64,000 nucleotides of DNA, from the NCBI RefSeq assembly GCF_020382885.2, contig NC_058499.1:10339872-10403871 (forward strand). Direction: 5' to 3'. The stretch is from Scatophagus argus. Lineage: Eukaryota > Chordata > Actinopteri > Scatophagidae. The position numbers were made by a program, and so were the translations under genes. Under the pieces are notes generated by a model. That model ran no database searches and was not told the origin of the DNA. It worked only from the letters and a program-made list of their open reading frames with translations. Positions 6,201 through 44,900 of this stretch are shown piece by piece (the stretch's first letter is position 1; each line of letters starts with the position of its first letter).

Positions 6201-6313
6201 CAATATTGAATGTGTTTTATTCAACTGAGTACGTATGGCAACACAGGAAAGCAAAATAAGCCTGTAAATCTTTGTGAAGAAGCACTTATGAATCTGAGTG
6301 AATATTTACTCCT

Positions 6314-6315
6314 GC

Positions 6316-6397
<82 letters not shown>

Positions 6398-6403
6398 GTC
6401 TGC
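6314..6403. repeat. (GA)37 array with inverted 8-base arms
   Basis: An uninterrupted GA run at 6321-6395. It is bounded by GCAGACAG at 6314-6321 and its reverse complement CTGTCTGC at 6396-6403. Long reading frames across it (Arg-Glu or Ser-Leu repeats) are artefacts of the dinucleotide. Confidence 0.97.
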
Positions 6404-8984
6404 TGCTGTATGGCTGCTATCAAAAAGCACACCATGACTTCTCCTGGCTTACAGCACGCTACCTGCATACATCCCCCCCAGTTGCCATGGTAATAGAGAC
6501 TGGCGTAAGTAGTGACGAGCCAACCACAGACATCAGAGCAGCTCTTAAGCAGAAACATCAGACGACTGCTGGTGGAGGTGATTTATTAAGCCCGTGTTCA
6601 AAGTCCATCTGAACCATAACAAGCCTATAAGCATGCAAAGGATCGAATACATTAAACTTGTTCAGAGAGCCCTCTCTCTCTTCATTACAGTCTTCATATT
6701 ACATTCCACTATGCATGAAAGGCTGAATGAAAGGACAAATAATAATCTGAAGAAAATATACTGGAGTGCACCAAAAATCAAGCTCACAATCTTATTTGCA
6801 GCATATCATGTTTATGCACAGTGAGAAATAATTTGCTACTAAATAACTGACTTCTCCAATGTTAAGATCTCAGGAGACTCTTTCAGTTTATTCACTGAAT
6901 GGCCTTTGCAGCATGCGCAGCATATTAGCCTTTCAGAAATGTCCTGTCAGGCCTGCCACCGGCTGTACATAGAGACTCTTCTCCTCCACGCCTTTCCCTG
7001 AATAATAACCTTCAACTAACCTTTAAACCACAGTGAATAATTTCAATCCTATTTTCATATCAATGGCTGAGTCAAGCCAGGCAATTATCTTTTATCCGTA
7101 TACTTTGCTGTCAGTGGAGAGAATAATAAAGTTTTCCCTTGTGAGGAGCTGCAGAAGGAAGAAAGAGAGAGGGAGCCAAAAAAGCAGAGCAAGATGCTGG
7201 AGATGCTATCTAAAGACATGAATGTGGCGATGAATTATTCAGTAATGACTACAAGATCTGTCATAAAAAAAAAAGCTCTGCTAACATCTGCACGGTGTTC
7301 TGAGGGGGCTGAGCAGAGCAGGGCATTGACGACAGCACGCCTCTGAAGATAAACATGACAAATTGGCAGATCATCTGTTCAATTAGGATAGCAGAGCAGG
7401 TGTGCTGGTAAGGCGTCTATGCCACAGGATGACACACTTACCAAGCCAAACCAGAGGCATGATGGGAAATACCTTGTTTGTGCGACAGTGATTTAGAGCA
7501 ATTCACCAGAAGGATATCCCAAGGAAAAAAAAAGGATATTCCCCTTGGTACTCATTAAAATTCGACTGCAGACGGCACCCTGCCCCACTCCCCCCCTCTG
7601 TTTCATTGCTTCATCCTTCTGCTTTTGGCTCCTCAACTGCCTGACTGGACGTTCCAGGATCATTTCTTATTAATCCATAAAACATACACTGGTGATGGGA
7701 TTGAGGGGAGCACTGGAGCAGCAAAACATGAGATATGGAAAAACATTGTGCATTTCGGCGAGCAAGCAGGCAGGCAGGTTTGGGGGGGTTGAATGGAAGG
7801 GGGAGAATAAGTGGTGAACAGGGAATGGGCTGTGTATGTGAGAGATGATGCTGGGGGGGGTCTGTAGGGCAAAGGAGGGAGGTGAGGTACAGAGAGAGGA
7901 GGGGGGGGCAAGCAAGAAACATGTTTTGAAATATTAATCCGTGGTTCTGGCCCTGGGCTGGAGCACAGAGATGAAAAAAAAGCAGGGGAACCTTTGAAGC
8001 GAGGGAATGTTCCCTGCATTTGTGAAGCAGGCGCTGCACAGACGGCCATGTTGGTGGGGTACAACTGGGGCAGGTGCACTGTTTCTCCCTCACATTTGAG
8101 AGCCCTCGTCTCCACTCTACCCCATACAGCTTATTGGTGCAGCGTGTATTTAGAGTGCTCCCTTTTCCCAGGCCTGGCACAAATGAGATGAGTGTGGTAA
8201 GTCTCTTAATCCCTAGTGCCTTGTAAAGCCTTTGAAAGGAATACTTACTGCGGCATAAACTATCGCTCACAGTTTTAAAGCAAGCACAAGAGGCGCTGTG
8301 CTCTGAGGGGAAGACAGCTTCCTGCGAGCAGCATCCAAGGGCTGTGGCATCACCAGATTTGGGTGAAGGGGAAAAGTGTATAACAGGATATCACAGTATC
8401 TTACTGAACCTTAATGACCCACTGAAACCCTGCTGAGGGACTAATGGATTCAGCACTCTGTTGTGACTGCCCCGTGTGCCCGTTAAAACCATGGTCCACT
8501 TACTTACAGCTGCGTGTGGCTGAGCGTCCAGCCATTCAGCCGACCGCCATCACCTCTCAGCCATCTCTCAGTGATACCACACATGACTTCACTATGCGCA
8601 CAACACCAGCACTACACGAGAGCCTCTACATGAGAGCCTCAACCGCAGTGCACAAGAAGCAGCAGGAAGACATATGCAAAAAGTGGCCAAAAAGTGAAGC
8701 CTCATTAAACATGAAAGGAAAAAAAAAATCATTTAGGTAGATAACTTAATATGCAGTCCTAGGATTTACCACGGCAAACACATCCGCTAAGAAGACAATA
8801 CATTAAAACACTTTGAAAAATCACATTGGGAAAAGTCATCATCATTAAAGCGTACTCAGGCTAAGTATCTTAGATGAATTATGCTCCCTGCATCAAAAGA
8901 CAGCAGGAATAACATTGAGAGTGTGTCCTTTTCTCTTCTATTCTCTGGCAGCACCCTGCTGGGAAACTTGAAATTACTCTCTGT

Positions 8985-27448: not shown

Positions 27449-30400
27449 CTAAACTGCCTTGCGGTGGTACTCTGGAGGAGCAACTTCATAGTCACTTGCA
27501 TTGAAGAGCGATGCGGAGTTCTTTACAAGATACCTGGAAGGGAGCAACATTTTACTCATATGTGCCGCGGGAGAATCAATGGGAATTATTAACAGTTTTG
27601 TGAATACTTACTTGAGGAAGTCTTGTAGATAACTGAGCAGCAGAGCAAGGCTCTTCTCATCCAGGGGAGTGTACGCAAGCATGGCTCCGATTCTCACTTA
27701 GAAACCCAAACAAACAGGATGTTATACACCAGTGACCTCAAACCTTGTCGTTACTTATGGTAAATCTAGAACTACTTCAATATTTCCAGCTTATGATGCT
27801 CACAAGGAGGTAATTCAAGTGAAACTGTAATTCATGCATTTGTGCCTTTCAGACTTGATTATTATGATGTCCCTTTTCTCTGGTCTACCTAGTTTTGTTA
27901 CTAGAAATGCTCAGCTTGTCCTGAATCTGCAGGTGGAATCTGGACAAAAACTTTTCCATATACATTTTGTCTTCTTAACTTTCTCCAAACAATTTCTTAA
28001 AGTGCTACCAATATTGATAATTTAGAGTTTCAAAAATCTCGTAATGATAGCGTGACAGAGTGAAACCAGAACTTCAAGTTCTGTTCCAAAAGTAAGAAAA
28101 GCCCATTCAAAATCCTAGTGACATTTGTAAAATTGCTAATAACCAAAAAATCCAGCTGTGTGGTTCATTTCTTATGTCTAGGATGGATGGTCGTTGAAAA
28201 AAAAGGAAATATTGTTGTTTACCTAATATTTCTGTTTTTTTGTAGACTTTAAAAAAAAAATAACACTTCCCCATAAGCCCGAGACCTTCACAGGGTAAAC
28301 ACCGAGTCAGCTTCTACTTGATATTACTAATCCTAATTCTAATATTAAAGATGCAAATGTATAATATGTCACACTTTTAACCTGCAATTTCTTGCTTGGG
28401 ACTGGGCAGATACAAATATTTTTAAGCCTCACTTAATTAAAGCTGCTTGTTGCTATAATAAATACTACATTGGAGTAATGTTGTGCAGCCGTTTTTACCG
28501 AAGAGTCTGAGTAGATGAGGAGCGCCGTAGATCTGAGACATAGATGTGTCTGGGTGATTGGCCAGGATGTCCGCGTACTGCGGCCTCTCAAATTTGTAGA
28601 GAAGTTGCGTCCCCAGCATGACGTTGAAATATTCCCGGACACCAGCGACCACCTCGTTCACGGCAAACTCCCTGAGCAGTGGAGGAGAAGCAAGATACAC
28701 CTCTATGACACACAGAGCCTTAAAATAGATTAAAAAAAAAACAAAAACAGCAAGTCATGCTTTTGCACCGCTCGTGCGATCTGCGACATTAACAATGTGT
28801 GTTTTTACTTGCTGTCAGAGTTTCCTCTGGATTTCTTGTAGTTTGCATAATCTTCAAGGACTGCGTCAACATTCTTTTTGGCAGGTAGGTGGAAAAGCTG
28901 AAGACATGAAACAAAATGACAGAAAGCAGCACGCAAATGAAGAACGTTGGAAATGTTAAGAGTGTAAACACATGAGACAATACTAATGAATAAAATGCTA
29001 ACACAAAGGTCAAACTTAGATCCTTAATGTCACTGGTTACTAACCTGTTTTTGCCTTGTAATCAGGTCCCAGTCATCCACAAGCCACGGTTTCAGCTCCT
29101 CTGGGATTTTTACTTTCACCTCCACTCGATTTATGAAGGTCTCCTCCTGAAGAGACAGGGACAAGTGTAAGAATTCAGCCAAGAGAACGTGCTGTTTAGA
29201 TCAGCGTTTGCTCAGTGAATGTCAGAAACATTTCTTAACGCTGAGTGTTTCCAGTATATGGCTGCAACTACGGAGAATTAAACATTGTACTTTCAGTAGC
29301 AGCTTACTGCTATTGGACATCTGAAACCGCCAAACAGAAATATCATGGAAAGAAACAGACTGATAAACTTACACTTTCAACTGTTGGGTCAACGCGTGCC
29401 CTCTTCTTTCGAGGAGGGTGGGTTGGGTCTCCCCCTGAACTTGTCCCTTCTCCGGCACCAGGAGCTGCATGGACGGAAACATACTTAATTAACACGATAT
29501 CAAGTTTTAGGCCACAATGGCACATTTTAATTTGGAGGATTCATGCATTAGTTTACAATTAAGTAAATACAAACCATATACTTACTCTTTTGTTTGTTCT
29601 TTTTGGTTTTCCTACAACAGATACACAAAACACAAGTGTTAAAAATCAAAAATAGGAAATCATTAACAGGTATAACACGACTAAAACAGTTTGGCTGGGG
29701 GCATCACCGCACATGACAGGTAAAACGAATAATGACTTGCACTCACACATCATTTTTCTGCGGTGCAGCAGGTATCTTCTTATTTGGCGCAGCACCCCTC
29801 ATTCTTCCTTCTACATAATGGTCTCTGAATCAAGCCAACAAAACAAGTTCAATTACTCAACAATACATCATTCATACTAAAGGCAGTCAGTCTGTTGAGA
29901 TTTCAGGACACAGAGTGTTTTTTCGCACGTATGTTTTTGCAAACAGACTGAATGGACTTACTGATTGGCCCTCTGAAGCTCTTTCTGTTTCTGCAGATTA
30001 CTGTCCACATACTTCAGCACTCTGCTTTCAGGAACCCATTCATCCCAGCTGAAAGACAAAACATGAAGAAGGAAATCAAGCACTTGGGAAATATTCACTT
30101 CATTAATCTCAAATATTTGACTAATTTGAAGCAAACACTTACTTTTTGTTCCACCCGCTGTAATGAATAAAGTACTTGATTTGTTTGTCCTTAATGTTTA
30201 TCTTAACACACTGCAAAGAAAGACATAAATCACTGTTGAAAATCTTTACCTCAGAGACAGACAGGAGGATCACATGATCAGAGAAACTGTCTAACTACTA
30301 CAGCCTACCTTAGCTTCGTAGAGCAATGGCCCATGAAAACACAGCACTCTTTCACCTGAACAGAGTGTTGGGTCAATTAAAATCAGCATGAGAGCAGTCC

Positions 30401-31682
30401 AAGTAAAACAACACGAAACTGTAAAGGCCACTAAACTGCTTGCACATGTTGAAGTTTCATGACGAATGTAATAAGAATATCTGAAGACTAAAGTTAGAGA
30501 AAAATTACAATAGAAGAGAGCGAATTGTGGTAGACTGAACAATTATTACAGCTTAAATCTAAAATCTTGAATGTCTCAACACATCAAAAACTAACACATC
30601 ACATTTTATAACTCCTAGTTGCACACTCGGGGACTCATGTTTCCACATTTCACATTGTTTTCAGAGACTAGAGTGAAAAGTTTAATCTAAATTTAATATA
30701 TGAAATGTAGGGTTAAGCCTAAAATAATTATTTTCATTATCAATACGTCTATTGAATATTTCACTGAATCTAATCAGCCTTTAAAACCCAGACACATTTG
30801 TATCACAGAAAAGCAGCAAATCCTCATAATGAGAGGCTGAACCTTTTTGCTACCTTTTGTTACCTCGATACTGATAATAAAGGTCGCAGTTGATGACTTC
30901 AAAATGACCAAACGACCAATACACAATCAATAAAGTGACTAATCATTACTATCATGACAAAGAGAATTACTTAATGACTTAATAATTTGCATAGGTTTGT
31001 TGAGTAGTAATTAATACATACTAAAACCTTAAATTATAACGTCTGAGATTATTCGTCCCATTTGAAATAAGTAACTTGATACTAACAATTAATGAACTCA
31101 CTGATCACCCAATAAATATAAGACATACATTACAACTGATTCCTGAAATACTGTCAAGCTTAACTAGAGAAAAGTTGATTCGCCACAACAGCAAAGACCA
31201 GTGAAGTACTTTCCATACATAAGGCACTTGGCCAGTCTAAGACAGCTGCTTAAAATCCCAATAAAACCCCAGTACACCAACTAGAACTCAGCTAACTATG
31301 AGAACAGGGAGATGGGCGGCGGAATCAATCAATGAGGGGCTAACGCTGCATGAATGAAGCTAGTCCTTTTAATCAGCTAGAGACAACATAACTAAGAATT
31401 CAAACCACGGACGTTGCCCAGATAATACCGCTGGCGTTACGATATGTTTTTAGAAATAAATGCTTAGTATGTGACTAACAAAAATTATCACGACCTCTTT
31501 TGTGCACAACAATGAGGGCTAACAATGCTAGCCGTAGCGGCATTTCCGACCATAACGCTAGCTAACATTTTGGACATTTCCGACGGCCCCAGCACTGAGC
31601 GGGACCACGGATCTGTCAGAAATGTAACGGACAACTTGTTACCTTCTTGAAATTTAGGCTTAGGGTCCTGTTTCGGCGCCAT
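27449..31682 (-). CDS. morf4l1: MORF4-like protein 1 (MRG15), complete, 12 coding exons
   Basis: Chromatin reader: MRG15 binds methylated H3K36 and is a subunit of NuA4/TIP60 acetyltransferase and SIN3-HDAC complexes (family knowledge). Coding exons on the minus strand: 31643-31682, 30309-30355, 30143-30210, 29962-30048, 29747-29824, 29586-29611, 29373-29464, 29045-29146, 28809-28897, 28499-28671, 27612-27696, 27449-27533. All have GT/AG borders and phases agree, giving 323 aa, the usual length of the short isoform. The N-terminus is [20 protein letters not shown]. The chromo barrel is about residues 8-80 and keeps Tyr26, Tyr46, Trp49 and Trp53 of the aromatic cage. A basic linker with KTKKNKQK and [10 protein letters not shown] follows. 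The MRG domain is about residues 150-315 and the protein ends [10 protein letters not shown]. Exons 1, 5 and 6 are duplicated upstream at 37.9-39.3 kb. Confidence 0.96.
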
Positions 31683-31800
31683 TCACGGATTAAACTTTAA
31701 AAATATGGGAAAAATCGCCAGCTCCCATTCCAGTCTGAAACGGCGCCGCTCACTAAAAACGTCATAATCAACTGCGTGACGTCTTAATACCGCGACTAGA
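31683..31800 (-). promoter_or_regulatory. morf4l1 promoter region with CRE-like sites
   Basis: Sequence directly upstream of the morf4l1 ATG. It is locally GC-richer (GGCGCCG) and contains a CRE/ATF-like TGACGTC core near 31777-31783 and a second ACGTCA-type core near 31760-31768. No TATA box is evident, as expected for a housekeeping gene. The first about 45 bases upstream of the ATG are also present in the duplicated copy near 39320-39360, but the CRE-like part is not. Confidence 0.4.
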
Positions 31801-32524
31801 TGCGTTCAAAACGCCAAGCGCTAAATGTAGACGGAATGAAAATAACCCCATTTTTGAATACTTCTCACGTACTCGTTTCTTATTATTTGTGCTGATTGTG
31901 GGGGTATCTTAACAGTTGCGTGTTTTTTGAAAAGTAATTTCCCAACTAAACGATAAATCGTGAAACCGTAAAAGACTTAATTTTTGTCAATCTATTCCAA
32001 GCTGGACCCATGAATTGTACGTGAGTGTGTTGATTACGGTCATACGATGAACACATACCCGATAGGCTGTTAAATTCAAATAAGATCCCTGTGCGGGCAG
32101 TAGAGGGTACTCAAGAAATAGAGATCATGAGTCCAGATTCTCATTGTTGTTCACACCACTTGGATGCAGAGGGCTTGCGGTGAGGTAACAGTGTTGCACA
32201 GAGCCTGCTCAAAAGCACTCGATAGCTCAGAGAACTGAATTTAATTCTTCAGGAGGCTTCATGTTTGTCACTCTCCAGTGCTTTCCAACTGAAACCCAGC
32301 CAGACTGGTAGTAGATGAGATTTCTAATGTCTACTCAATCTCAATGGACCCTGACTTGTTATAAAGTTGGGGTTTCGCTACAGTTTTGGTTTTATTACTC
32401 TCTTCTGTCTGCTGGCAGCAGTTTGAAATGCATCACAGATTCTTATTCAATCAATAATTTGTAGTAGACTTTGCCTATTTATCACAGCCAAAAGCAATAT
32501 TACAAATACAACGTGGGGGAAAAT

Positions 32525-32768
32525 AAGCAAATACATTTACTCCATGTATTTTCATTTTAGGTAGGTTACTTCATATTTCTACTCCACCACATTTAAGGGG
32601 GGGGGGCACTAGAAGCTGTACACCACGTTTATTTGACACATGTAGTTAGGAGTTATTTTAAATATCACTCTTGCATGAAAAACATGAAATGAGTGTGTTG
32701 TACATTTAAGTAAAAGTAGTTAAAATTAGTTCTACTTCCACCAGCTACATTAAAATTGCACTGTTCCT
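32525..32768. mobile_element. Internal fragment of hAT-like fish MITE
   Basis: Contains the ordered blocks TTTCTACTCCACCACATTTA, CTCTTGCATGAAAAACATGA and AAGTAGTTAAAATTAGTTCT then CCACCAGCTACATTAAAATTGC. These match the interior of the hAT-like repeat whose ends are at 21.7-22.6 kb (family recall). Both termini are missing. Confidence 0.5.
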
Positions 32769-33134
32769 TGAACCAGCAATTATGTTAGAATTTATCACAA
32801 ATGACAGTTAAAATCTCTGCAGGTCTTCAGTGACATTTATTATATATTATATTATTATTTGTAGTATTTCCTGTTGTATTAACATGCTGACAAAGCAGTA
32901 CAGTTTGAAGGATGCCAACCCATAACTGAGTCAGGCATCCCGGGCCTCTCAAGTGTTCCTGCAGGGCAAATGAACCCTCCTGTGTCAGATTTATAATGTA
33001 CTACTGTCCTATGCTGCCACCTGGTGTTCAGAAAGGATTCTGGTGCCAGTTGATTGGAGCAGATGCACATGCTCAAGTGTGCATTGTATTCTTCCAAGTG
33101 TATATAACATAACAAACTGGTACTTCAAAGGAAT

Positions 33135-33140
33135 TTTATT
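33135..33140 (-). terminator. poly(A) signal downstream of KIF23-like exons
   Basis: AATAAA on the minus strand (TTTATT on plus), about 420 bases after the read-through stop at 33560-33562. It lies well before the morf4l1 promoter, so the chimeric unit could end independently. Confidence 0.45.
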
Positions 33141-33559
33141 CCCGAGTGTACAGTGAAGTCAGGAGAGCTCAGTTTTGTCAGTGGCAGGAACGGAATCAAA
33201 CACACACACAAACAGTGTGTAGTGAACAAAAATCAATATTGTGACAGTTTCACAATATCTATTCACGTACCAAGTAACACATGTGACAAAGTAGCTTTGG
33301 TGACCCATGTATACCACACTTCATGCATACATAAAAGCATGGAAAATGTTTAAATATGATCACTAGAGCTAAATATTAAAAAGTTCAGACTATTGCACAA
33401 CAGCCAGGTGAGCACAGAGGGAAGTGATCACCGGAGCAGCAGGCAGCTGCTTTTAGGGTTTTCTACGTCTGTAAAAGGAGACACAGTTAATCAAATACAG
33501 CGTATTGCAGAAGAAATGCTTTTCTCACATGTGGATCTATGAAAGGCAACTATCAAAGA

Positions 33560-36500
33560 TTAGTTGGTGATCCCCTGATGTTCATAGCCAGGAGTCATGT
33601 TTGATCCAGCCTGCATCTCTACAGCCACAGAGCACTGCAAAAAAGACAAATACAGCCCCAAATGTATGCTGGTGTATTGGTAAATTTGGATTAACCCGAA
33701 TGATGGTGTCAGCTAAGAAACACATTAACAGCAACACAATGAAGAAAACACAAAATGAATTAGCAACTAGTCGGATAACTGTTTGACTTGTTCTGCTTTT
33801 CTTTATGATGCAACCGGCAGTCTAGAACATTTAGATCACTACAAAAGCAAAACAATCATTAGATAATGAAAATGTTGTTTTTGTGACCCCAAAGTATATT
33901 AAATTATGACCAATTTTGCAGAATCATGAGATTGACTACAACAACGAGAAACATACATTCATATGTGTTTTAGACTTGATGCAAAGCTTCCACACACGTG
34001 TAAATTGAAGCTCATTACATGATTGTTCTGCTTTCTAAACCGAGACACACATGCAGTGGCAGTTTATTGGAGACTAATCAATATAATCATCCTACCCTCG
34101 TCTCCACATCAGTCCAGGCTCCATCTGTTTCATCTCCTTTGGCAGGTTTGCCTTCTGAAGATCTTCTTTTGTGGCTTCAGAGGCAAATGTAAAAGGAAAA
34201 GAAAATGTTAAAATGCCACTAAACATCTGGCCAACCTGTAGCTAACAACTGGCTGTAGGCTGCTACCTCGGGACTGTGGTGAGCTCCTGTTTCAGGGTCT
34301 CAATGTCGGTGAACTGGACCGCCTGTCCTCCCCCTCTGGTTTTAATCACATCACCCTGAAAAATAAAGAACACAGGAGAAAATATCGATAAATGTCCTAT
34401 TATGTTTTGCAGTACTGTATCCATTGTGAAAAACACATTATTAATTAGTAGTTTATAAGCAAAGATTTGTGGCAGTGGTGTTTAAACCCCCCCTCGTCTT
34501 TTATGTGTGCCCATTACTCAATAATGCTGGAGATGCATCGACTGACTGACCAGGGACTGGAATCACCCATTTTTCAGTGTTCTCGGCCTGGACCTGAGAC
34601 TGGCCTTCAGTCTCCCCTGTCTCCGATTCCAACCCGGTCTGTTTTACACATGCGGCACACACCATACGCACAGTGGCACAGGCAATAACGTCACAGCCAC
34701 ACACCAATAAGTTCTTCACCGTGAGTGAAGAAGACGCAAAGCTCACAATTCCTCAAACACACAAGGCCAAAGTAAGCGTGGGGCACTACCACAAAAACGT
34801 TCAGAACAACAAACCTAATCAGATACTTAAAACACCATCATGCAGCTGAACGTGCCCAGTTTGAAGAGGCTAGCAAAGGAAAACCACCTAAAGCTAAAGC
34901 TAGCTAGAGCTCAGTGCCAGAGACAAGACAGCAGCCTCTTCTGTCTTTCCTTGATATAAACAGTGAAAAAACCAACGCAATTATGAGGAAAATTCATGGC
35001 CCTGGATGATCAGTCGCTCTCCATAGTTGAGAACAGAGGCTTCAGAAATCTGATAAATTACCTCAGCCCTGTTGAATTTACAAGCATACTGTGAAATGTC
35101 ATGTAACTGACATTTGTTTCGTTACATATATATCTGTTGCACCTGCTTTTTGGTGGCAAAGTAAAATCTGTCAGATAAAGTCGGGTGTACATCTCATTTT
35201 CATTTCAATTTCTATTTGTAGCTCAGTTGCAGAGCACTTTATTCTGAGAGGAAATTGCAAAGTTTTAAAAATTTATTTTATTATGAAAGTAAAATTTTGC
35301 CTCCAATAAAAGATGATTTTTTGTTTGTATAAGCTGTCAATTATAGTTCTTAGAAAGAAAACTGGAATAGGCAAAAATTGGTATTAGCAGGTTACACTTG
35401 TAACCTAGTAAAATATGTGTAATTGTGTACATTACCTTAATGAGTTTAGTCTGTATCTCGCCATCGGAGGCAAGCTCCTGATGTGTTAACACGTATCTGT
35501 CACACTTCGACAGGGCCTTCTCACTGGGTGCAGACACCTGGATGGCATTGGGGATGACGGGCTGCAAAACCGTACCGAGGTCCATGCTGGAGGAGGGCTT
35601 GTGGTCCACCCACTTCTCCCCAGCAACACAGCGAGAACGACGGTGCAGGGGCCGCACCGGTGTCACCGTCTACACAGCACGGTGGCAGTTAAAAAAGATA
35701 AATAAATAACATATCATACATACATAAAAGCAAAGGATTACATTAAAACTGGTGAATAGCTGGGAATATCTCCGGTTGTAGGATCTCATAGAATGTGCTT
35801 TCAATGTGAACAGCCAGACTTCTACAGCTAGACACTTAAAAGCCTCATCAGGGGTACCAGTTCTCATTATACAACCTCATGCTGCTGCCTGTAGCTAACT
35901 CACTGACCCTGTGGCTTCGCCTATTTAGGTCTACATCAAATGTTGGGGAGTTGGCCTCCTCTTCCTCTCTAGTGCAACATGCAGCTCTCCTCCTGGCCCG
36001 GCTGCCTGAGGTGGCTGCAGGGGACTGAGTTCTTGTGGGTGTACTAGTGGAATGGTAGCCCTGCTGCTGCTCCCATGCAGAGATGGAGCTTATCACAGAC
36101 AAAGAGCTACTGGGGCTGGGGAGGGGGCAGACGGGCCTGGGATTCATTTCATTTTCTTCAACTCCAGTGGGAGTGACTGGCCTGACATGGGACGAATCAA
36201 CAGGGCACTGGGGAGAAAAGTGACAAGATGCACGGCGCAATTACAAGCACGTATGGTTAGAGAGATAGTACAAAGAAATCAGTGAAGCATAAAATGTTAC
36301 CGGATCTGGCAGAACAAGAACAGCAGACACCTGTAGAGCCTAATATAGACAAATAAAACAGCCTTCTAACTTAAATTCTAACTTTGTGATGCACTGTTAT
36401 AATTTAGCTGAAACTATGAAAGTGTTATTTTTAAAGCAGCGAAATTAGTAAATCAATCAAGGAGCTGACCAACAGAAAATAGTGATGTGATTAATCATTG

Positions 36501-38110
36501 AGGTTACTGTTCAAGCAAAATGACAAATATTTGATAGAATAAGTTGCTTTTCCTTGTTTTACATTATATCAAACAGCATTTTGGGGTTCTGTACTGTTGC
36601 CTGGAGATCTCATGATGCCACTACGGACTAAAGGATATTGTGATAGCTAGATCAAATAATTAATAGAAGAAATAGTCAGGAGCAAAGCAGGTGCTCCACA
36701 TGCGCACTGTCAATACAACGTACAGGGAGAGGCGAGGGCGAAGCTGATCTCTTCGCGGGGAGGCGGTCCTCTCTAGAGGGCCTCTTTGGCTGTGTATTAC
36801 GCGGTGGAGGATCGAGACGACATGTGGTCTTGCTCTCCGTCACGATGGCCTTCAGCTGCTTCAGCTTCTCATCTTTCACCCAGAGTTTGTTTTGCATCTC
36901 CAGCTGCATCGCTTGAACACGTCTGTCCTGCACAGCAAAAGGTAAAATGTTGGAGTGCATAAATAAAGTGTAGAAATGATCACTGAGGAAGCTGAAGCAT
37001 GAAAAACAAATAACCCAAGGCAGTAAACAGACTATAGTACACAAAGACTACTTAGTTTAATTCAACATTTGTTTTGTAAGAGGAGTAACTCACACATTCT
37101 TTCTCCCACTTGAGCTGGGTGTCTGTGACCACGCCATGCATGCGCTGCTCCATGCGTCTCTTGTCAGACAGCTCCCTCTGCAGCCTGTGCTCTCTGGTAT
37201 CCAGCTCCTGCTTCAGTGATCGCTTGTCATCCTCATAGATTTTAGTTGTTTTCTGCAGGATGTCAATCTGGCACAGAACCATGTCAGACATTTAAGAAAA
37301 TGAGAAACATCTACAAAGCAGCAAGTCGTGCGAGGGTTAAATGATTTAGTGTCTCACCTTGTGTTCCTGCGTCTTGGTTCTTTTCTCCAAACGTTGGATC
37401 TCTGCCTTGTTGTTCTGGATGATTTTGTCCTTCTCTAGCAATTTGCTGTTTTGTTCATGAATAAAATTGTCTTTGGAATTGAAGTTGTTGTCCAGGTCCT
37501 GAAGCATGGACTTCATCATGTTTGCTAAAATTACCATGAAGGGGAGAACATGTGAGCAAAATAAGAAACCCAACTTTTCATGTCACCGTGAAAGCCGAGA
37601 GGGAAGGACTGAGCTAAAACGTGAGCAGGCACCTGCTTTGCTGTATTCGTCGATCATCATCTGCCTGATCCTGTGTCTGTTCTGCAGAGCTTCGATCAGC
37701 CTGGGCAGAGTGATGTCGTCGTGAGGGTCGGTCAGCTCAGAGGAGGGTAGAGGTGGGAGGCTGTGCACCAGGTGGCTTATAACAGAAGGCACATCTGAGG
37801 AAGCAGAGAGAACCAACTTGACTATTTGAATTAATCATGTAGGTAATAAACGTACAAAATAGTCCCCATATGAGATGTACATATTCAGTATGTGCAAACA
37901 CATATACTTACCCTTTTGTTTGGCATGTTTTGTTTTTCTACAATGGAAAATTTTCAAAAAAGAAAATTAATAACAGGTATAACATCCCCAAAAACAGTTT
38001 GGCAGGAGGCATCACAGCAGATAACAGGTAGAATAAGTAATGACTTGCACTCACACATCATTTTTTTGCATTGCAGCACATATCTTCTTATTTGGCGCGG
38101 CACCCCTCAT
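33560..38110 (-). CDS. Chimeric unit: duplicated morf4l1 linker exons joined in frame to KIF23 (MKLP1) tail exons
   Basis: KIF23 is the kinesin of centralspindlin, which acts at the midzone and midbody in cytokinesis. Only its C-terminal half is here. Proposed exons (minus): 38055-38110 from an internal ATG and 37912-37937 (both morf4l1-like), then KIF23-like 37633-37794, 37358-37524, 37094-37267, 36724-36927, 35908-36207, 35436-35669, 34267-34355, 34096-34174, 33560-33634. Every junction is phase-compatible and no internal stop occurs, giving 521 aa: 27 from the MORF4L1 linker and 494 from KIF23. Residues about 45-190 form the heptad-rich coiled coil ([36 protein letters not shown]). Then come a Ser/Pro-rich region, the HRRSR phosphosite motif, [38 protein letters not shown] and WTDVETR. 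Motor, neck and the CYK4-binding region are absent. Splicing across the morf4l1/KIF23 junction is inferred. The alternative is a non-coding or decaying fusion. Confidence 0.6.
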
Positions 38111-39360
38111 TCTTCCTTCTGCCTATTGGTCTCAGAATTAAGGAAACAAACACGTTCAATTGCTTAAGAATACATCATTTATATTAAAAGTAGTCAGTTG
38201 GCTGTCAGGAAATTTCAAATTTTGCATATTTTTTGCAAAAACTTGTATTTTTTCAGTACAGCTGTCAAAGCATACACACGTAATGCCCTGTTCTGTGTGT
38301 CTCGGTATGTTGTAAAACATTTCGTTCTTTTCTAAGTATTTAAATATTATAAACCGTGTTCACAATGAAGAACACCATGTTCTAATACAATTAGATGATG
38401 ACTGTATTTTGTCTTAACTGCCCTCTCTATGGACCTAATTACATCGAAGTTTATAAATGACTTTTAAACCAGACTGGAGTCAAACGTTTAATTTAGTAGC
38501 AGCCTTGATGTATGAAACGCAGGGCTGAGCCTAACTTTAAAATTATGTTTTTAAATCAGTTAATCTATTAAATATTTTATGCAATCTCTAACACCCAGAG
38601 ACATTCATTTAACAATTATTATGTTTTGTTTGAGGGATTAGTTAGCTATTGATTTTCAAAGGATCAATCCACAATCAAATAAATACTCATTATTTCTTCC
38701 TTAATGAAGAAAATCACTTCATGACCTGAGCTTGAGAACTGGCGGCGTATTACCTTCAGAAAAGTTACATGGGTTCCTGCTGAGACATTTGTAATTAGTA
38801 ATATCATAATTAAGTCTAACATTCTGTGTATTATTTTAAATAAGTAACTTGATACTGTCTTATTATACTGTACTAACAAAGACCAGTGCGGTACCTTCAA
38901 CACAATGCATTTGGCACATCTTACTGTAGAGTGGCGAGAATCAATATGGCGCGAACACTGCATGAAAGAAGCTAATGCTATCCGTTAGCCGGTGTCAACA
39001 CCACTGGAAATTCAGACCTGACGTTTCACTAAGTTCAATGTGTGTATGAAAGGAATGTATAAAAAAATGCTCACAACATAACCGACGAACAATGCTTCAT
39101 ATGTACTAAGTGGCCATGTACTAATAAGTGGCGAATGAAAATGATGAAGCCGTGTTTTTTGGCTGATGTTAGCTGTCCAACGGCGGCAGTTAGCTAACAT
39201 TTTGGGCCTCTCTTACGGCTCCAGCGCTGACAGAGACAACAGATCTATCAAAAATGAAGTCAGTCGACTTCTTACCTTCTTCAAATTCAGGTTTGGTGTC
39301 CTGTTTCGGCGCTGTTCATTGAATAAACTGTCAAAATACGGGAAAATCGCTAGCTCCCAT
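37912..39360 (-). pseudogene. Partial tandem duplicate of morf4l1 5' end (exons 1, 5, 6)
   Basis: Second copy of the morf4l1 5' region about 7.6 kb upstream of the parent. The exon 1 equivalent (39276-39315) is the same 40 nt length with an intact GT donor, but the start codon reads ACA instead of ATG. Exons 2-4 are missing. The exon 5 equivalent (about 38055-38130) has an in-frame TAG in the parental frame, and its parental acceptor CAG is changed to CTG with another AG two bases downstream. The exon 6 equivalent (37912-37937) is open and keeps its length and donor. Parts of introns 1, 4 and 5 align with the parent. It cannot encode a chromodomain or MRG domain. Its surviving exons run in phase into the KIF23-like exons. 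Confidence 0.85.
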
Positions 39361-41872
39361 CTAACAGCTCATCTAAACACATTAGTCACCGGTTTAAATT
39401 GTAATTTAGACAGTGTGACTGTGTTTTATTCAGGAAAAGTTCTCTTATTGCTGTGTCTCTTTTGTTTTAACATCTTAAAACTTTGGCTTTAGGGCTAAAA
39501 CTAATCAGAGCTATTGATTGTTATCGATTATGTCCGTTATGCGCATTTGTCAGTTACTTTGCAGGTTAAATGTTTAATCGTTTTATCTGTAATACGTTAG
39601 AAAATACTACAAAAATGGCTAATACAAATCCCCGAAGCCCTCACCAACAGGCCATATACAATAATATTGTAACGTCCCTGCAAGAATGTTCCATGGTGTT
39701 AATGTTGATAGAGTTTATGTTAATGTTAGAGTCAGATCAGTTAGAGTTGAGAGCTAGGAGTTTTATGGTTTCCTACGGTCTGTGAATGCATGTGTGGTCG
39801 GATGTGAGAGCGAGAGGGCGGGGGAGCTGAGAGAGAGAGAGAATGTGCCGGTGAGTGAGAGTGGAGATGTAAAGAGAATGAGGAGAGAGACAGACTGTTG
39901 TTTTGTGGGACCCCTTTTTTGTTGTTTTGGCGTGGTTACTTAGCTTTCCATTTTACATTAAAATGAAAAATAAACTCGTTAATGCTCCCTAGTGGACAAT
40001 AGGACCCATTTCTAAACTACATCCAGCATAGTCCTGTATTTTAGCATTTAGCTAACGACCTGCACACACTCCAGTGAGAATTCGTCTGCAAGAAGCTAAT
40101 ACGAAGCTAATGCCAGCATACAAACACAAACTTAATTCAAAGAAATCTTGCAGCATAGTATGATAGAAGAACAGATACAGTTGAATCAGACGAGCGTCCT
40201 TAGACCAACTACCAAACTACATGCACTTTCTTATATCTGTTTAATTCTTACAAATATCAAACAGCACAGTAGACCTTGTAGCGGTTCAAAATGATCAAAG
40301 CTTCTACTGAGTTATTGACATCATCTGATAGTAAAACGGACAGAGAAACAGAAAATGTTACAATGCATGTCGAGCAACAATGACATCTTTAAATAGCATT
40401 AATTATATAATTACAAAAGAAATATCACATACAATGACAGCAATGCATATCCACAAATCAAACAAATGCTGAAAATATATATGATAATAAATAATTCTAA
40501 TTGTAAGCACAAGTCAAGAAAAATAAAGGGAGGGGAAGTTGTCCATAATAACTTCAATGGTTGTAACTTCTGGGCCAAAATGCATTCTGTGATACACTCA
40601 AAGGCAAAGCTATCACAGTTAATTTATAGGCTGCTGCAAATACACTTAACAAAAAAGGCCAGGCACCCTGCGGCCTCACTCAGGAACAGCATAGCACTCA
40701 AACAGCTTTCAGGTTATTCGCAGAGACATGCAAAGCTGAGAACTACTCTTGAAGTGTTTACTGCAACTTTGAACGCATCACTGCTCCACTCCTCTTCACT
40801 GTGCCTTTATATCAGAAACAAGTGCTAAAATCAGACAGAAAGACAATGTGAAATGTTATCAATCCACCTGCGCCCATTTCGTTTCAAAGGTTTTTGAGTC
40901 TTTCAGTTAATTCATTATCTTACGTGGACCAGAAGCTTGGAGCAGAAATGCGTTGATGTCAAATGGCCGTTTCGCTGTACTTTTCTGGGTATATTTTTAA
41001 GTGTAATATGCAAATTAAAACAGCTAAAAGATGAACACACAACATTGCAAATCTTAGAAGTGTATAAAGGCCCAATTACTTTATGTGACGAGGCGAGGCT
41101 GCTTTCATGGGTCAGTGCCATTCATTCCCACGCTGAAAAAGCCTGCTCTTACAATACTGACTTACTCCCAAATTCTACGTATTTTAGGTACAGTCTGAAC
41201 TTTACAGTATTGTTCATATTTGAGTTGACGGAAACAAACAAAGAGTGCAGTTGTGACAACAGAAGGATCTAGCATTTGCTTTTGCAATTCTAGTGGCAAC
41301 AGTTCCTAGAGGCATCGGGAATGCTTCTTTAAAAACAGCATACATCCAACATAACTTACATCATAAATAATTCTTCAAAAATAAAACGACCACAGCATGA
41401 ATGTCTTTCAAAAAAATCTACAGTGATGGCAAACAGAGCCAGATCTTTCTGCTGTCAAAACATAATTGACAGTAATGATTTAGAAAATAAAGAAAGTTAC
41501 ACGTTCCTGTTTTTTGATGTGACTTGCCTTTTGTACATCTATAACAATGCCCATTTTCTTTATATTCTAAATATCATGTTCCATAAGGTGTCACCTCACT
41601 GGGTTCTGTGCACATAACATTATACTGAAATAATGCCATTGACATGGAATATCGAAACAAAACTGTAAAAACCAGGTACAAAAGGTACAATATACTGTAA
41701 TCAAAGGACCACATGAAGAGGTGTGAAAAAGTCTTCAGTATTCACAGAAAAATATCAACTGAAGTAACTCACCGGACAAGAAGCGTCCTAAGTTTATATA
41801 CATATGATAAGTAAAATTGAAAATAGATTTTCCTCTCTGTACATAGCACTGTATTCTTTCATCTTTCTCTTC
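39361..41872. other. Intergenic or pias1 3' UTR
   Basis: Between the duplicated morf4l1 exon 1 and the pias1 stop. The 40.2-41.9 kb part is AT-rich and could be a long pias1 3' UTR. A purine-rich GAGAGAGAG stretch lies at 39810-39895. No exon is recognised. Confidence 0.4.
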
Positions 41873-41878
41873 TTTATT
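41873..41878 (-). terminator. Candidate proximal poly(A) signal of pias1
   Basis: AATAAA on the minus strand, 54 bases after the pias1 stop codon. That would make a very short 3' UTR. The AT-rich sequence down to about 40.3 kb could be a longer 3' UTR, so this may be an alternative or unused site. Confidence 0.3.
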
Positions 41879-41931
41879 TACAAAGAACTCCCAATCTCAA
41901 GATCTCCCTTGTCTTTCAGTTCTGTGTGGAT

Positions 41932-44900
41932 CTAGTCAAGAGAGATAACGTCAGATATGGGGCCATAAATGGCTGCTGCTGCCGCAGCTTCCACTGAAGA
42001 TCTCGACAATCCTGAGATGGTGTGGCTGTCTCTGTCTCGCTCTCTGTCTTTATCGCGGTCTCGCAGACTGCTGGAGGACACCAAACTACTGGTGCTGCCA
42101 CTGTTGCTCCCTCCGTTGGTCGCTGCCAGCGTGCTGCTCCCAGGTGTTCCAGGTTGCTCCCGTAGCATCTGAGAGGAGCCATAGGGAAGGAAACGGTTGA
42201 GTAGCAGGTCGTGGTCCTCTGAGGCTGAGGCCGAGGCTGCTGCTGCTGCAGCCATCACCATGTTGTAATGCTAATAGGACAGAGCATAGTGACCATTAAT
42301 ACAACAACCAAACATCAGCATAAATCAAAGCGCTGTATGGTCCTGGGAAAGCTCAGGTGTTTGAGTGAATATACCTGATTGTCGCCTTGGAGGAAGGAGA
42401 AGAAACTTAGATCTGTAAGAAAAGGAAGAAAACTGAGTAAGTTTAATGTGTTCTGGATACAAATAACCAATATTTACAGCTACGAAATGATTTAAATTAA
42501 AGCAATAATCATCTGTTTATACAAAAACAAGTTTGCTTGGATTTTGTGAAGTGTCTTGGTACAAAACTTGAGGTAATACAGAGGCAAATAAGTTATGAGA
42601 CAAGGATGCTGCATGGAAAGGGACAAAACTGCAAAACTAAAACAATGGACAGTTAAAGAGCAGTACAGACTGAGCGAACAGTTACTGTGATGAAAAACCT
42701 TGTCAGCATACATATGGACATATGATTATTGTACCAAGACAGACTTTTACAAATCTAAACCTATCCTTTAAAGCTAGTGACAAATCTACCTGGCAGGTCA
42801 CTAGTTGTGTGATAATAATGCCGATAGTCCTGGATAAGAGGTGGAGGTGGAGGAATGTAGCTGGTCTCCACAGGGGGCATGCTGGGAGCTCTGGTCACAG
42901 GTGAGGCCTGGCTGTGTAAGTTCAGTACTCTGAGGGGAAACAACGCCACACCATGTTAGTGAGGACATAAGTAACAGGACAGATCTGTGCAAGGAGAGCC
43001 CAAAAATACATTTTTTATGATGATTTCACTGGTTTAGTGACTCACCCTTTGTTTGGAGGTGGAGAGACAGGTGACAGTGAGGGACAGGCCCTTTTAGGAG
43101 GCGGCTCATCATCCAGCTCATCCTCTGAGGAGCTATCCAGTGTCAGGTCAATCACATCTACTTTGCTGCTGCTGTCATTAGATGATCCCCGTTTTTGCTC
43201 ATGGGTTTCTGTCCGAGATGTATCTGCAAACAAGCGGCTAATTGACACTGTGCTCGTGGATCACAATGAAAGGGTACACGTAAAGAATATGAAATGTGCA
43301 AGTTACATACCGCTGTCCACACCATTGAATGAAGCAGACACCTCCTGCACCTCTTTCTTTGACCTCATGGGGGCCCAGTTTCCATCTTCTTTGAACTGGA
43401 TTTCATCACAGTCAGAACAGCTATTCAAGATTTCCATGAATAACCTGTGAAAACAGCATGACGGTTCAATAGAGTTTGATAATCTCACAACCAGAATTGC
43501 ATGAGCTTTAGTATTTCAGCACCCCTTAAAACTTTTTTTCTTGAAAATACAGTAAAACAACTAAAAACAAACACTAAAGACAAAGGTACTGCTTTGTTGG
43601 GGTTTCAGGTGCAACCGACTCACTGAAATATCACATAGGAAGATCAATTTAAGCAACAGATCCATGAGTTTGAAGCTTCACAAAAGGCCAAAACACAGAG
43701 TGCTTTATAATACTCCAAGGAAGGATTCTCTCTCAAATGTTTTCATAGTAGCAATTATTTTATCCTTGTCCTCAACGATAAGCAGGTAAAATGTAAAAAT
43801 ACTCTGACAGGAAGTCATCTGTAAGGAATGTGTGACATCACCTGGCAAACTTCCTCACATGCTGAGACAAAAACATCACAGCGAAACCACAACATACCAC
43901 AGAGCATCAGATAAAGCAGCGCTGTACTCACCCATCAATAATGAGGTGCTCATATGGCGCCTTCTTGTCACAGACTGGACACACCCAGGTCGGCTTCTTC
44001 TCGTTCATTTGGATATAAAGTGTAGCATCGAAGCACTGAAGGTGAGAGCATGTTATTGCCCTGCATGGGATTGTCAGTCTCATCTTTCCCAGCTTAAACA
44101 CACACACACACACACACACAAAAACACTCAGAATAAATGTGACTTATCTGTACTGCATAAATCTCACGATATTATGTTTTATAATTACAAAATATGAGTG
44201 TATAGAGCCACTGTGCTCTAATTAGCTATAGAGCATATGTACAAGTAGTTTTTGTCTCAATAAAATACACATTCTGGCAAAACAAAAATCACCATATAAT
44301 TAAAATTTCTAATTAATTTCTTGTTTACATTCTAATCTGATTGATATGACTAACAACAATAACATAGGTAGTATGTAGCTGAGTATTTACAGGACACAGG
44401 AGAGAGACTCGCAGACTGGTGGTGGCGATCTCACTCTCTGGATCAGCTGTTAGCTTCTCCTTAACTGTGAGCAATAAACAAAACAGATGAAATGCAAGTA
44501 TTAGAACTGTGAAATACAAGTGTGCCAGATGATGACAAGACCACAAACTCCCTCAATTAATTCTTGACTAATATTCAAAGAATACAACAATGTAAAGGGA
44601 TAACTTACTGAGTGCTCTCGAGTGATCGGGGTTCCTAATTCCTTTGGCCCGTAGTCTTTGCAACAACACTGCAGACGACTGCTGTCTTACCAAATAAACA
44701 GCCATGGAAAAACTCTGCCAAAAGACACATTAAGATAATGAGCAAAACGAGCCACAATGAGGTGACTAATGTCCGTTCTTACAGCATAATTTTAAACGGG
44801 CTATGACAAAGCTTTGCATGGGTCTTCTTACTCTCCCAATTTCTGAAGTCCATGACACCACAATTGTGTTGGGAACTGTGGTGGACAGTCGGACAAGAGA

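What the first reader, a model, noticed from the sequence alone, without database searches (positions are those of the whole stretch)
33560..39315. Phase-matched chimeric gene: morf4l1 5' duplicate driving a motorless KIF23 tail
Seen directly: a partial tandem copy of morf4l1 (exons 1, 5, 6) lies immediately upstream of nine KIF23-like exons. All nine are open, have GT/AG borders except the last, and agree in phase. The morf4l1-like exon 6 ends in phase 1 with G, and the first KIF23 exon continues the codon as GAT. The predicted product of 521 aa joins 27 residues of basic MRG15 linker to the KIF23 coiled coil and C-terminal region. The introns shared with morf4l1 have diverged visibly while over 1.4 kb of KIF23 exon sequence has no stop. 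That argues against a long-dead pseudogene. Inference: a motorless MKLP1 tail could dimerise with or compete against full-length KIF23 at the midbody.
Basis: partly seen in the sequence, partly recalled or inferred. Interest (0 to 1): 0.88.

Follow-up and report, generated by a model that had tools for sequence, protein, structure and literature searches.

The report
Motorless KIF23 duplicate fused to MORF4L1
A fish chromosome carries a real second copy of the back half of the cell-division motor gene KIF23, joined to a broken copy of the neighbouring gene MORF4L1; parts of it appear to have been overwritten from the complete KIF23 gene nearby, and related fishes have similar motor-less copies, but whether this one makes a working protein is not settled.

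Summary
The arrangement is real and its coordinates are right. The window matches spotted scat (Scatophagus argus); a public predicted protein (P0001, 545 aa) already models the chimera. Its parent, full-length kif23a, lies inverted about 126 kb away on the same contig, which argues against an assembly error. The block is a partial segmental duplicate of kif23a (nine coding exons plus about 2 kb beyond), joined inside introns to a decayed morf4l1 copy (start codon lost, exons 2-4 deleted, in-frame TAG). Chaetodon trifascialis has the same MORF4L1-KIF23 protein junction; nine tail-only proteins in nine species keep the coiled coil, CHO1 exon and ARF6-binding domain.

The copy is a mosaic: about 98-99% identical tracts, introns included, alternate with unalignable introns. 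That points to gene conversion with kif23a, so open frames are weak evidence. Tail proteins evolve faster than full KIF23, yet the ARF6-binding domain is nearly fixed between three sister pairs of tails, and the parent's CHO1 exon is dead in this genome. An ARF6-linked modulator of KIF23 is my favoured, unproven function; for the scat copy alone, neutrality is not rejected.

The parts
39277..39360 (-). Copy of morf4l1 5' UTR and exon 1; start codon lost (ACA at 39315); homology to the intact gene ends at 39360
38895..38919 (-). First coding exon of the public model P0001 (MCQMHCVEG), in former morf4l1 intron-1 sequence
   Evidence: exon use is a prediction, no RNA seen
38754..38776 (-). Second coding exon of P0001 (THVTFLK)
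   Evidence: prediction
38055..38130 (-).
37912..37937 (-). Copy of morf4l1 exon 6, ends phase 1 with G
37836..37878 (-). Junction interval: morf4l1 intron-6 homology ends near 37878, kif23a intron homology starts near 37861 (blastn) and is strong from about 37836
37633..37794 (-). KIF23 tail exon 1 (C-terminal part of the neck, start of coiled coil); 162 of 162 bases identical to kif23a
37358..37524 (-). KIF23 tail exon 2 (coiled coil), 164 of 167 identical to kif23a
37094..37267 (-). KIF23 tail exon 3 (coiled coil), 172 of 174 identical
36724..36927 (-). KIF23 tail exon 4, 200 of 204 identical; end of the near-identical tract I0-E4 (24 differences in 1112 aligned)
35908..36207 (-). CHO1-type exon, open (100 aa); the matching kif23a stretch in this genome is dead
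35436..35669 (-). KIF23 tail exon 6: altered HxRxxS site (HRRSRC) and start of the ARF6-binding domain; 222 of 234 identical
34267..34355 (-). KIF23 tail exon 7 (ARF6-binding domain), 89 of 89 identical
34096..34174 (-). KIF23 tail exon 8, 78 of 79 identical
33560..33634 (-). KIF23 tail exon 9 with stop, 64 of 75 identical; would-be donor CT instead of GT
32148..33452 (-). Duplicated kif23a 3' UTR and 3' flank; AATAAA at 33140
28437..31728 (-). Intact morf4l1 (start ATG at 31682), source of the upstream copy (approximate extent; gene named from recall of its protein)

Best explanation
Shown: a block running from a kif23a intron through its last nine coding exons (and the small terminal exon) to about 2 kb past the gene lies inverted, about 126 kb along the same contig, next to a second copy of the 5' part of morf4l1, so that morf4l1 intron 6 runs into a kif23a intron. 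Stretches of the block are nearly identical to kif23a, introns included, while others are unalignable; I infer gene conversion, most likely from the full gene to the tail. Inferred: the copy is spliced as a chimeric mRNA and makes a ~521-545 aa motorless tail (short MRG15 linker peptide, coiled coil, CHO1 exon, ARF6-binding domain) that can dimerise with itself or with full KIF23 and occupy ARF6 without microtubule motility, acting as a modulator or partial competitor of centralspindlin at the midbody and supplying the kif23a-type CHO1 segment that the scat kif23a no longer encodes. I rate the origin and the mosaic at about 0.85, and the working-protein step at about 0.4; the confidence given is for the whole statement.
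For: Full kif23a on the same contig, opposite strand, with a counterpart for tail exons 1-4 and 6-9 and a remnant of exon 5. Mosaic identity: I0-E4 2.2% and E7-E8 1.1% different; I5-E6 9.0%; introns 4 and 6 little better than shuffled; run test P <= 0.0015. The morf4l1 copy itself is old (K 0.175-0.22). Public protein model P0001 and the same MRG15 junction in Chaetodon trifascialis P0003. ARF6 domain protected between sister tails: Sparus-Pagrus 1 of 86 versus 53 of 408, P 0.00024; Larimichthys-Collichthys 0 of 86 versus 32 of 356, P 0.00074; two Chaetodon 1 of 86 versus 42 of 404, P 0.0018. CHO1 exon open in 9 of 9 tail proteins, while the scat kif23a CHO1 exon has no 5' end or acceptor, a frameshift running into TAG, and TT at the donor.
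Against: No RNA or protein evidence was examined. Scat tail branch: 11 tail-only versus 2 full-only amino-acid changes of 360 sites, rough omega 0.58, neutrality not rejected. Taken tail by tail, the ARF6-versus-rest test is not significant in 4 of 9 (scat 0.053, C. trifascialis 0.29, C. auriga 0.053, Chelmon 0.062), and full-length pairs are also conserved there, so in the butterflyfish conversion could contribute. The tail has lost its terminal splice donor in this assembly and the copied start codon. The HxRxxS site is lost in 4 of 9 tails. kif23b on contig C1 has a CHO1-like stretch matching its Larimichthys counterpart over its length, so the tail is not the only source of such a segment. 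The N-terminal part of the neck is missing, so entry into centralspindlin is uncertain. Trees group tail with own full gene, not tail with tail, so a single origin for all families is not shown.
Confidence: 0.4

Rival explanations
1. A dying pseudogene, without protein function in scat, that looks intact because gene conversion with kif23a keeps overwriting it.
For: Near-identical tracts include introns; more tail-only than full-only amino-acid changes in 9 of 9 comparisons; lost start codon and lost last donor; within E1-E4 there are 7 nonsynonymous to 2 synonymous differences, omega 0.93.
Against: Sparid tails carry 6-7 tail-only changes in the ARF6 domain, so they were not recently converted there, yet Sparus and Pagrus differ at only 1 of 86 sites. 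With an assumed 10% indel rate, intact frames at the sparid divergence have chance about 3e-5 to 6e-5 if neutral, before allowing for the fact that only intact copies get annotated; the same sum for scat is 0.16, no evidence. The CHO1 exon is open in 9 of 9 tail proteins.
Confidence: 0.35
2. Independent recent partial duplications of kif23a in each family, instead of one old copy kept similar by gene conversion.
For: Tail groups with own full gene in the E1-E4 tree (support 100 scat, 97 Chaetodon, 97 sciaenid, 79 Symphorus, 76 sparid); a tree forcing the scat and butterflyfish tails together is rejected (p-AU 7e-5). The Larimichthys tail includes extra upstream KIF23 sequence and no MRG15 piece. 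Cichlid short copies group with cichlid full genes.
Against: Scat and C. trifascialis share the same protein junction (morf4l1 exon 6 to the same KIF23 exon), which is unlikely twice; scat tract divergence is patchy from 1% to unalignable, which one recent event would not give. For sparids, sciaenids and lutjanids this rival stays open.
Confidence: 0.2
3. Assembly artefact: motor exons wrongly placed or collapsed.
For: None found beyond the high similarity of parts of the two loci.
Against: A kif23a with tblastn matches for residues 28-872 lies at C7:10.240-10.247 Mb; the copy differs from it in many stretches; no N in 31001-42000; a second family has the same protein junction.
Confidence: 0.02

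Closest known systems
KIF23/MKLP1 (kinesin-6, centralspindlin)
   Same: Coiled coil, CHO1-type exon, MKLP1_Arf_bdg domain, exon borders matching those of kif23a
   Different: No motor, only the C-terminal part of the neck, MRG15-derived N-terminus, HxRxxS (LATS/14-3-3) site changed to HRRSRC in scat
NOTCH2NL / NOTCH2tv and other truncated human segmental duplicates (SRGAP2C, ARHGAP11B) (PMC11956922, passages read)
   Same: Incomplete segmental duplicate of a conserved gene, with gene conversion from the parent locus, proposed in some cases to act against the parent
   Different: Keeps the C-terminal half, lies inverted, is joined to a second gene, and its morf4l1 part is far more diverged; function unknown
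CHO1 isoform of KIF23 (human exon 18; PMC4320110, passages read)
   Same: Extra ~100-aa exon, reported there to have actin and Arf3 binding activity
   Different: In scat the kif23a exon is dead and the motorless gene carries the open copy; activity of the fish exon untested

Membership tests
KIF23/MKLP1 tail homologue | MKLP1 ARF6-binding domain | tested here: met
   Pfam PF16540, 141.6 bits against cut-off 28.2; PDB 3VHX, E 1.6e-43
KIF23/MKLP1 tail homologue | Exon-by-exon homology to kif23a | tested here: met
   (exon 5 matches only a remnant)
Kinesin motor protein | Kinesin motor domain | tested here: not met
   No Pfam motor hit in the 494 aa; tblastn of full kif23a finds no significant motor exon in the window
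Centralspindlin subunit | Binds CYK4 through the neck | not testable with these tools
   Only the C-terminal part of the neck is present; the ZEN-4 neck binds CYK-4 (PMC4395295, passages)
Chimeric gene (morf4l1::kif23) | Sequence from two genes joined in frame with legal splice sites | tested here: met
Chimeric gene (morf4l1::kif23) | A transcript crosses the junction | not testable with these tools
   No RNA data; only predicted proteins P0001 and P0003
Functional gene under purifying selection (scat) | Tail-branch omega below 1 | tested here: inconclusive
   rough omega 0.58, P 0.35
Functional gene under purifying selection (other families) | Domain-specific constraint between sister tails | tested here: met
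   ARF6 domain P 0.00024, 0.00074, 0.0018 in three sister pairs; proteins only, no dS; tail by tail 5 of 9 significant at 0.05
Gene conversion | Mosaic of near-identical and diverged tracts including introns | tested here: met
   the five stretches of the run test were picked after the alignment was seen

The most novel reading that the evidence does not exclude
Several percomorph fish families keep a motorless KIF23 encoded by a separate gene, selected for its ARF6-binding domain and CHO1 exon; in scat it takes over the kif23a-type CHO1 segment lost from the parent motor gene, so one splice isoform has become its own, motor-free gene that tunes centralspindlin and ARF6 membrane traffic, while gene conversion with the parent keeps it compatible.
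Probability: 0.3. Interest if true: 0.75.

Novelty: new variant of a known kind. Interest (0 to 1): 0.5.

Why it matters
If translated, it is a natural separation of the KIF23 tail from its motor, so that ARF6 binding, CHO1 and coiled-coil functions in cytokinesis could be studied without microtubule motility. Even if not, it is a case in which gene conversion with a nearby parent makes a partial duplicate look selectively preserved, a warning against reading open frames as function. Four paper searches (kif23/MKLP1 with fish duplicates; kif23 with teleost paralogs; morf4l1 with kif23; motorless kinesin with chimeric gene) listed 14, 5, 9 and 10 papers, none of which describes it in its title or the start of its abstract; apart from the passages of PMC5045880 I did not open those papers.

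Tried and rejected
One simple recent duplication: disfavoured by the patchy divergence. Tandem duplication of a kif23a-morf4l1 block in direct order: disfavoured because kif23a lies inverted about 126 kb away. A script for tree-topology tests on three segments timed out; only the E1-E4 test was repeated, with a fast constrained search, so its likelihood gap may be inflated. A structure prediction was queued and was not finished when asked; nothing rests on it.

Rows and choices: one search listed the best 120 of 1166 hits, 120 of 7584, 120 of 320. The length filter hid KIF23 proteins above about 864 aa. The full-gene rows for tail-bearing species came from a query without the CHO1 exon, so the absence of CHO1 in those 8 of 8 rows is suggestive only; the DNA proof is for scat alone, and the related Acanthopagrus P0156 keeps an in-frame but shortened CHO1 segment. 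Labrus P0168 (87% coverage) was not examined. One search used 44 proteins; one search used 39, 26 and 39 rows. Collichthys was paired with the Larimichthys full gene. The direction of conversion is inferred, not tested. The chances for intact frames assume an indel rate and ignore that broken copies would not be annotated.
Full report
What is there. The window is C7:10339872-10403871 of a 570.7 Mb genome. A public predicted protein of Scatophagus argus (P0001, 545 aa) agrees with my 541-residue model of the locus at 540 of 541 positions, so I take the species as spotted scat. On the minus strand the order is skor1, pias1, the chimera, then intact morf4l1; these names rest on recall of the proteins in the open frames.

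Corrections to the anatomy. The morf4l1 copy has lost its start codon (ATG to ACA at 39315), lacks the stretch with exons 2-4, and carries an in-frame TAG at 38125. P0001 instead begins in two small exons at 38919-38895 and 38776-38754, inside former intron-1 sequence. Its last residues (KRRKP) need a splice after 33564, where this assembly has CT; kif23a has GT there. Whether the assembly behind P0001 differs at that site I could not see.

The parent. Full-length kif23a (protein P0123, 876 aa) lies on the same contig at about 10.240-10.247 Mb on the plus strand, about 126 kb from the near end of the copy and inverted to it. A more distant paralogue (kif23b) is on C1, and so is a second morf4l1. 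A paper on teleost smad3 (PMC5045880, passages read) names kif23, tle3, morf4l1, pias1 and skor1 as genes shared by the two teleost smad3 neighbourhoods, so kif23 and morf4l1 are old neighbours. The window has no significant motor-domain match. The duplicated kif23a block runs from inside the intron before tail exon 1 to about 32148, some 2 kb past the gene. The joint with morf4l1 intron 6 lies between 37878 and 37836.

Mosaic divergence. Tail and kif23a differ at 24 of 1112 aligned bases across I0-E4 and 3 of 267 across E7-E8, with introns 1, 3 and 7 at 98-99% and intron 2 at 93%. They differ at 31 of 344 in I5-E6, 21 of 321 in E9-3'UTR and 20 of 328 in a 3' flank piece. Introns 4 and 6 align at 78% and 77% where shuffled sequence gives 76% and 75%. 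Permuting the 99 mismatches over these 2372 sites reaches the observed longest run with P <= 0.0015; I picked the five stretches after seeing the alignment, and exons are among them. The morf4l1 part of the same structure has K 0.175-0.22 from its source. I read this as an old copy with recent gene-conversion tracts, most likely from kif23a, because the full gene has only 2 private changes against 11 on the tail. The open frame of tract E1-E4 therefore says little about selection.

Selection. In scat the pair (exons 1-4 and 6-9) gives dS 0.058, dN 0.019, omega 0.33. Polarised with 13 other full-length KIF23 proteins, 11 changes are on the tail and 2 on the full gene, of 360 sites. Splitting synonymous changes equally gives rough omegas of 0.58 (tail; neutrality not rejected, P 0.35) and 0.10 (full gene, P 0.005). 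In nine of nine comparisons the tail has more private changes than the full gene (Tajima P from 0.022 to 1.7e-9). Between sister tails the ARF6-binding domain is nearly fixed: Sparus-Pagrus 1 of 86 versus 53 of 408 elsewhere, Larimichthys-Collichthys 0 of 86 versus 32 of 356, two Chaetodon 1 of 86 versus 42 of 404. Chelmon-C. trifascialis (5 of 86 versus 80 of 406) and scat-C. trifascialis (4 of 86 versus 86 of 408) agree. Tail by tail, the same contrast is significant in 5 of 9 (Symphorus, two sciaenids, two sparids) and not in scat, the two Chaetodon or Chelmon. Sparid tails carry 6-7 private changes in that domain, so recent conversion does not explain their mutual similarity; in butterflyfish it may.

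Spread. Nine tail-only proteins were found in nine species (P0001-P0008, P0011), which I assign from recall to Scatophagidae, Chaetodontidae, Lutjanidae, Sciaenidae and Sparidae. P0003 of Chaetodon trifascialis begins [28 protein letters not shown] and then the same KIF23 exon, so the fusion is shared with scat; the other seven models start differently. Cichlid short copies (P0009, P0010, P0030) keep motor or neck sequence and group with a cichlid full gene, so I leave them out of the nine.

CHO1 exon and regulation. Nine of nine tail proteins have an open CHO1-type exon. In scat kif23a this exon has no 5' end or acceptor, a frameshift running into TAG, and TT at the donor. The Sparus full-gene model P0122 has only a remnant, while Acanthopagrus P0156 keeps an in-frame but shortened segment. 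kif23b still has a CHO1-like stretch. The human S814 LATS/14-3-3 site (PMC4320110, passages read) is HxRxxS in 28 of 28 full-length rows and lost in 4 of 9 tails, scat included (the Collichthys row was blank there and reads HQRSCS, kept). This fits a tail released from 14-3-3 control, or simple decay.

How it most likely works. Shown: a partial inverted duplicate of kif23a, fusion inside introns, mosaic similarity to the parent, retention of tail domains, and ARF6-domain constraint in other families. Inferred: gene conversion and its direction, transcription, translation, dimerisation through the coiled coil, and competition or co-operation with KIF23 for ARF6 at the midbody. The nearest parallel in kind is the truncated human segmental duplicates with gene conversion such as NOTCH2NL (PMC11956922, passages read). 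The verdict is a real and interesting chimeric partial duplicate whose function is unproven and whose apparent intactness in scat is probably partly due to gene conversion.

Noticed in passing
C7:10245251-10245491 (kif23a parent, between its exons E4 and E6; outside the window): The CHO1-type exon of full-length kif23a is dead in this genome: 5' end and acceptor missing, frameshift with TAG, donor TT.
   Followed up: partly
window 33563-33562: The terminal exon's would-be donor reads CT instead of GT, while the public protein P0001 uses that junction; possible polymorphism, assembly difference or non-canonical site.
   Followed up: partly
proteins P0009, P0010, P0030 (cichlids): Cichlids have separate short kif23a copies with motor or neck sequence that group with a cichlid full gene, suggesting repeated partial duplication of kif23a.
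   Followed up: partly
protein P0011 (Collichthys lucidus): The tail model has an extra piece of the ARF6-binding domain at its N-terminus, a possible exon duplication or model error.
   Followed up: no
window 36207-36166: The scat tail's CHO1 exon contains HVRPVT, which fits the HxRxxS/T kinase motif; whether it matches the human S716 site was not tested.
   Followed up: no
window 6298-6582: Long TC/GA simple repeat.
   Followed up: no
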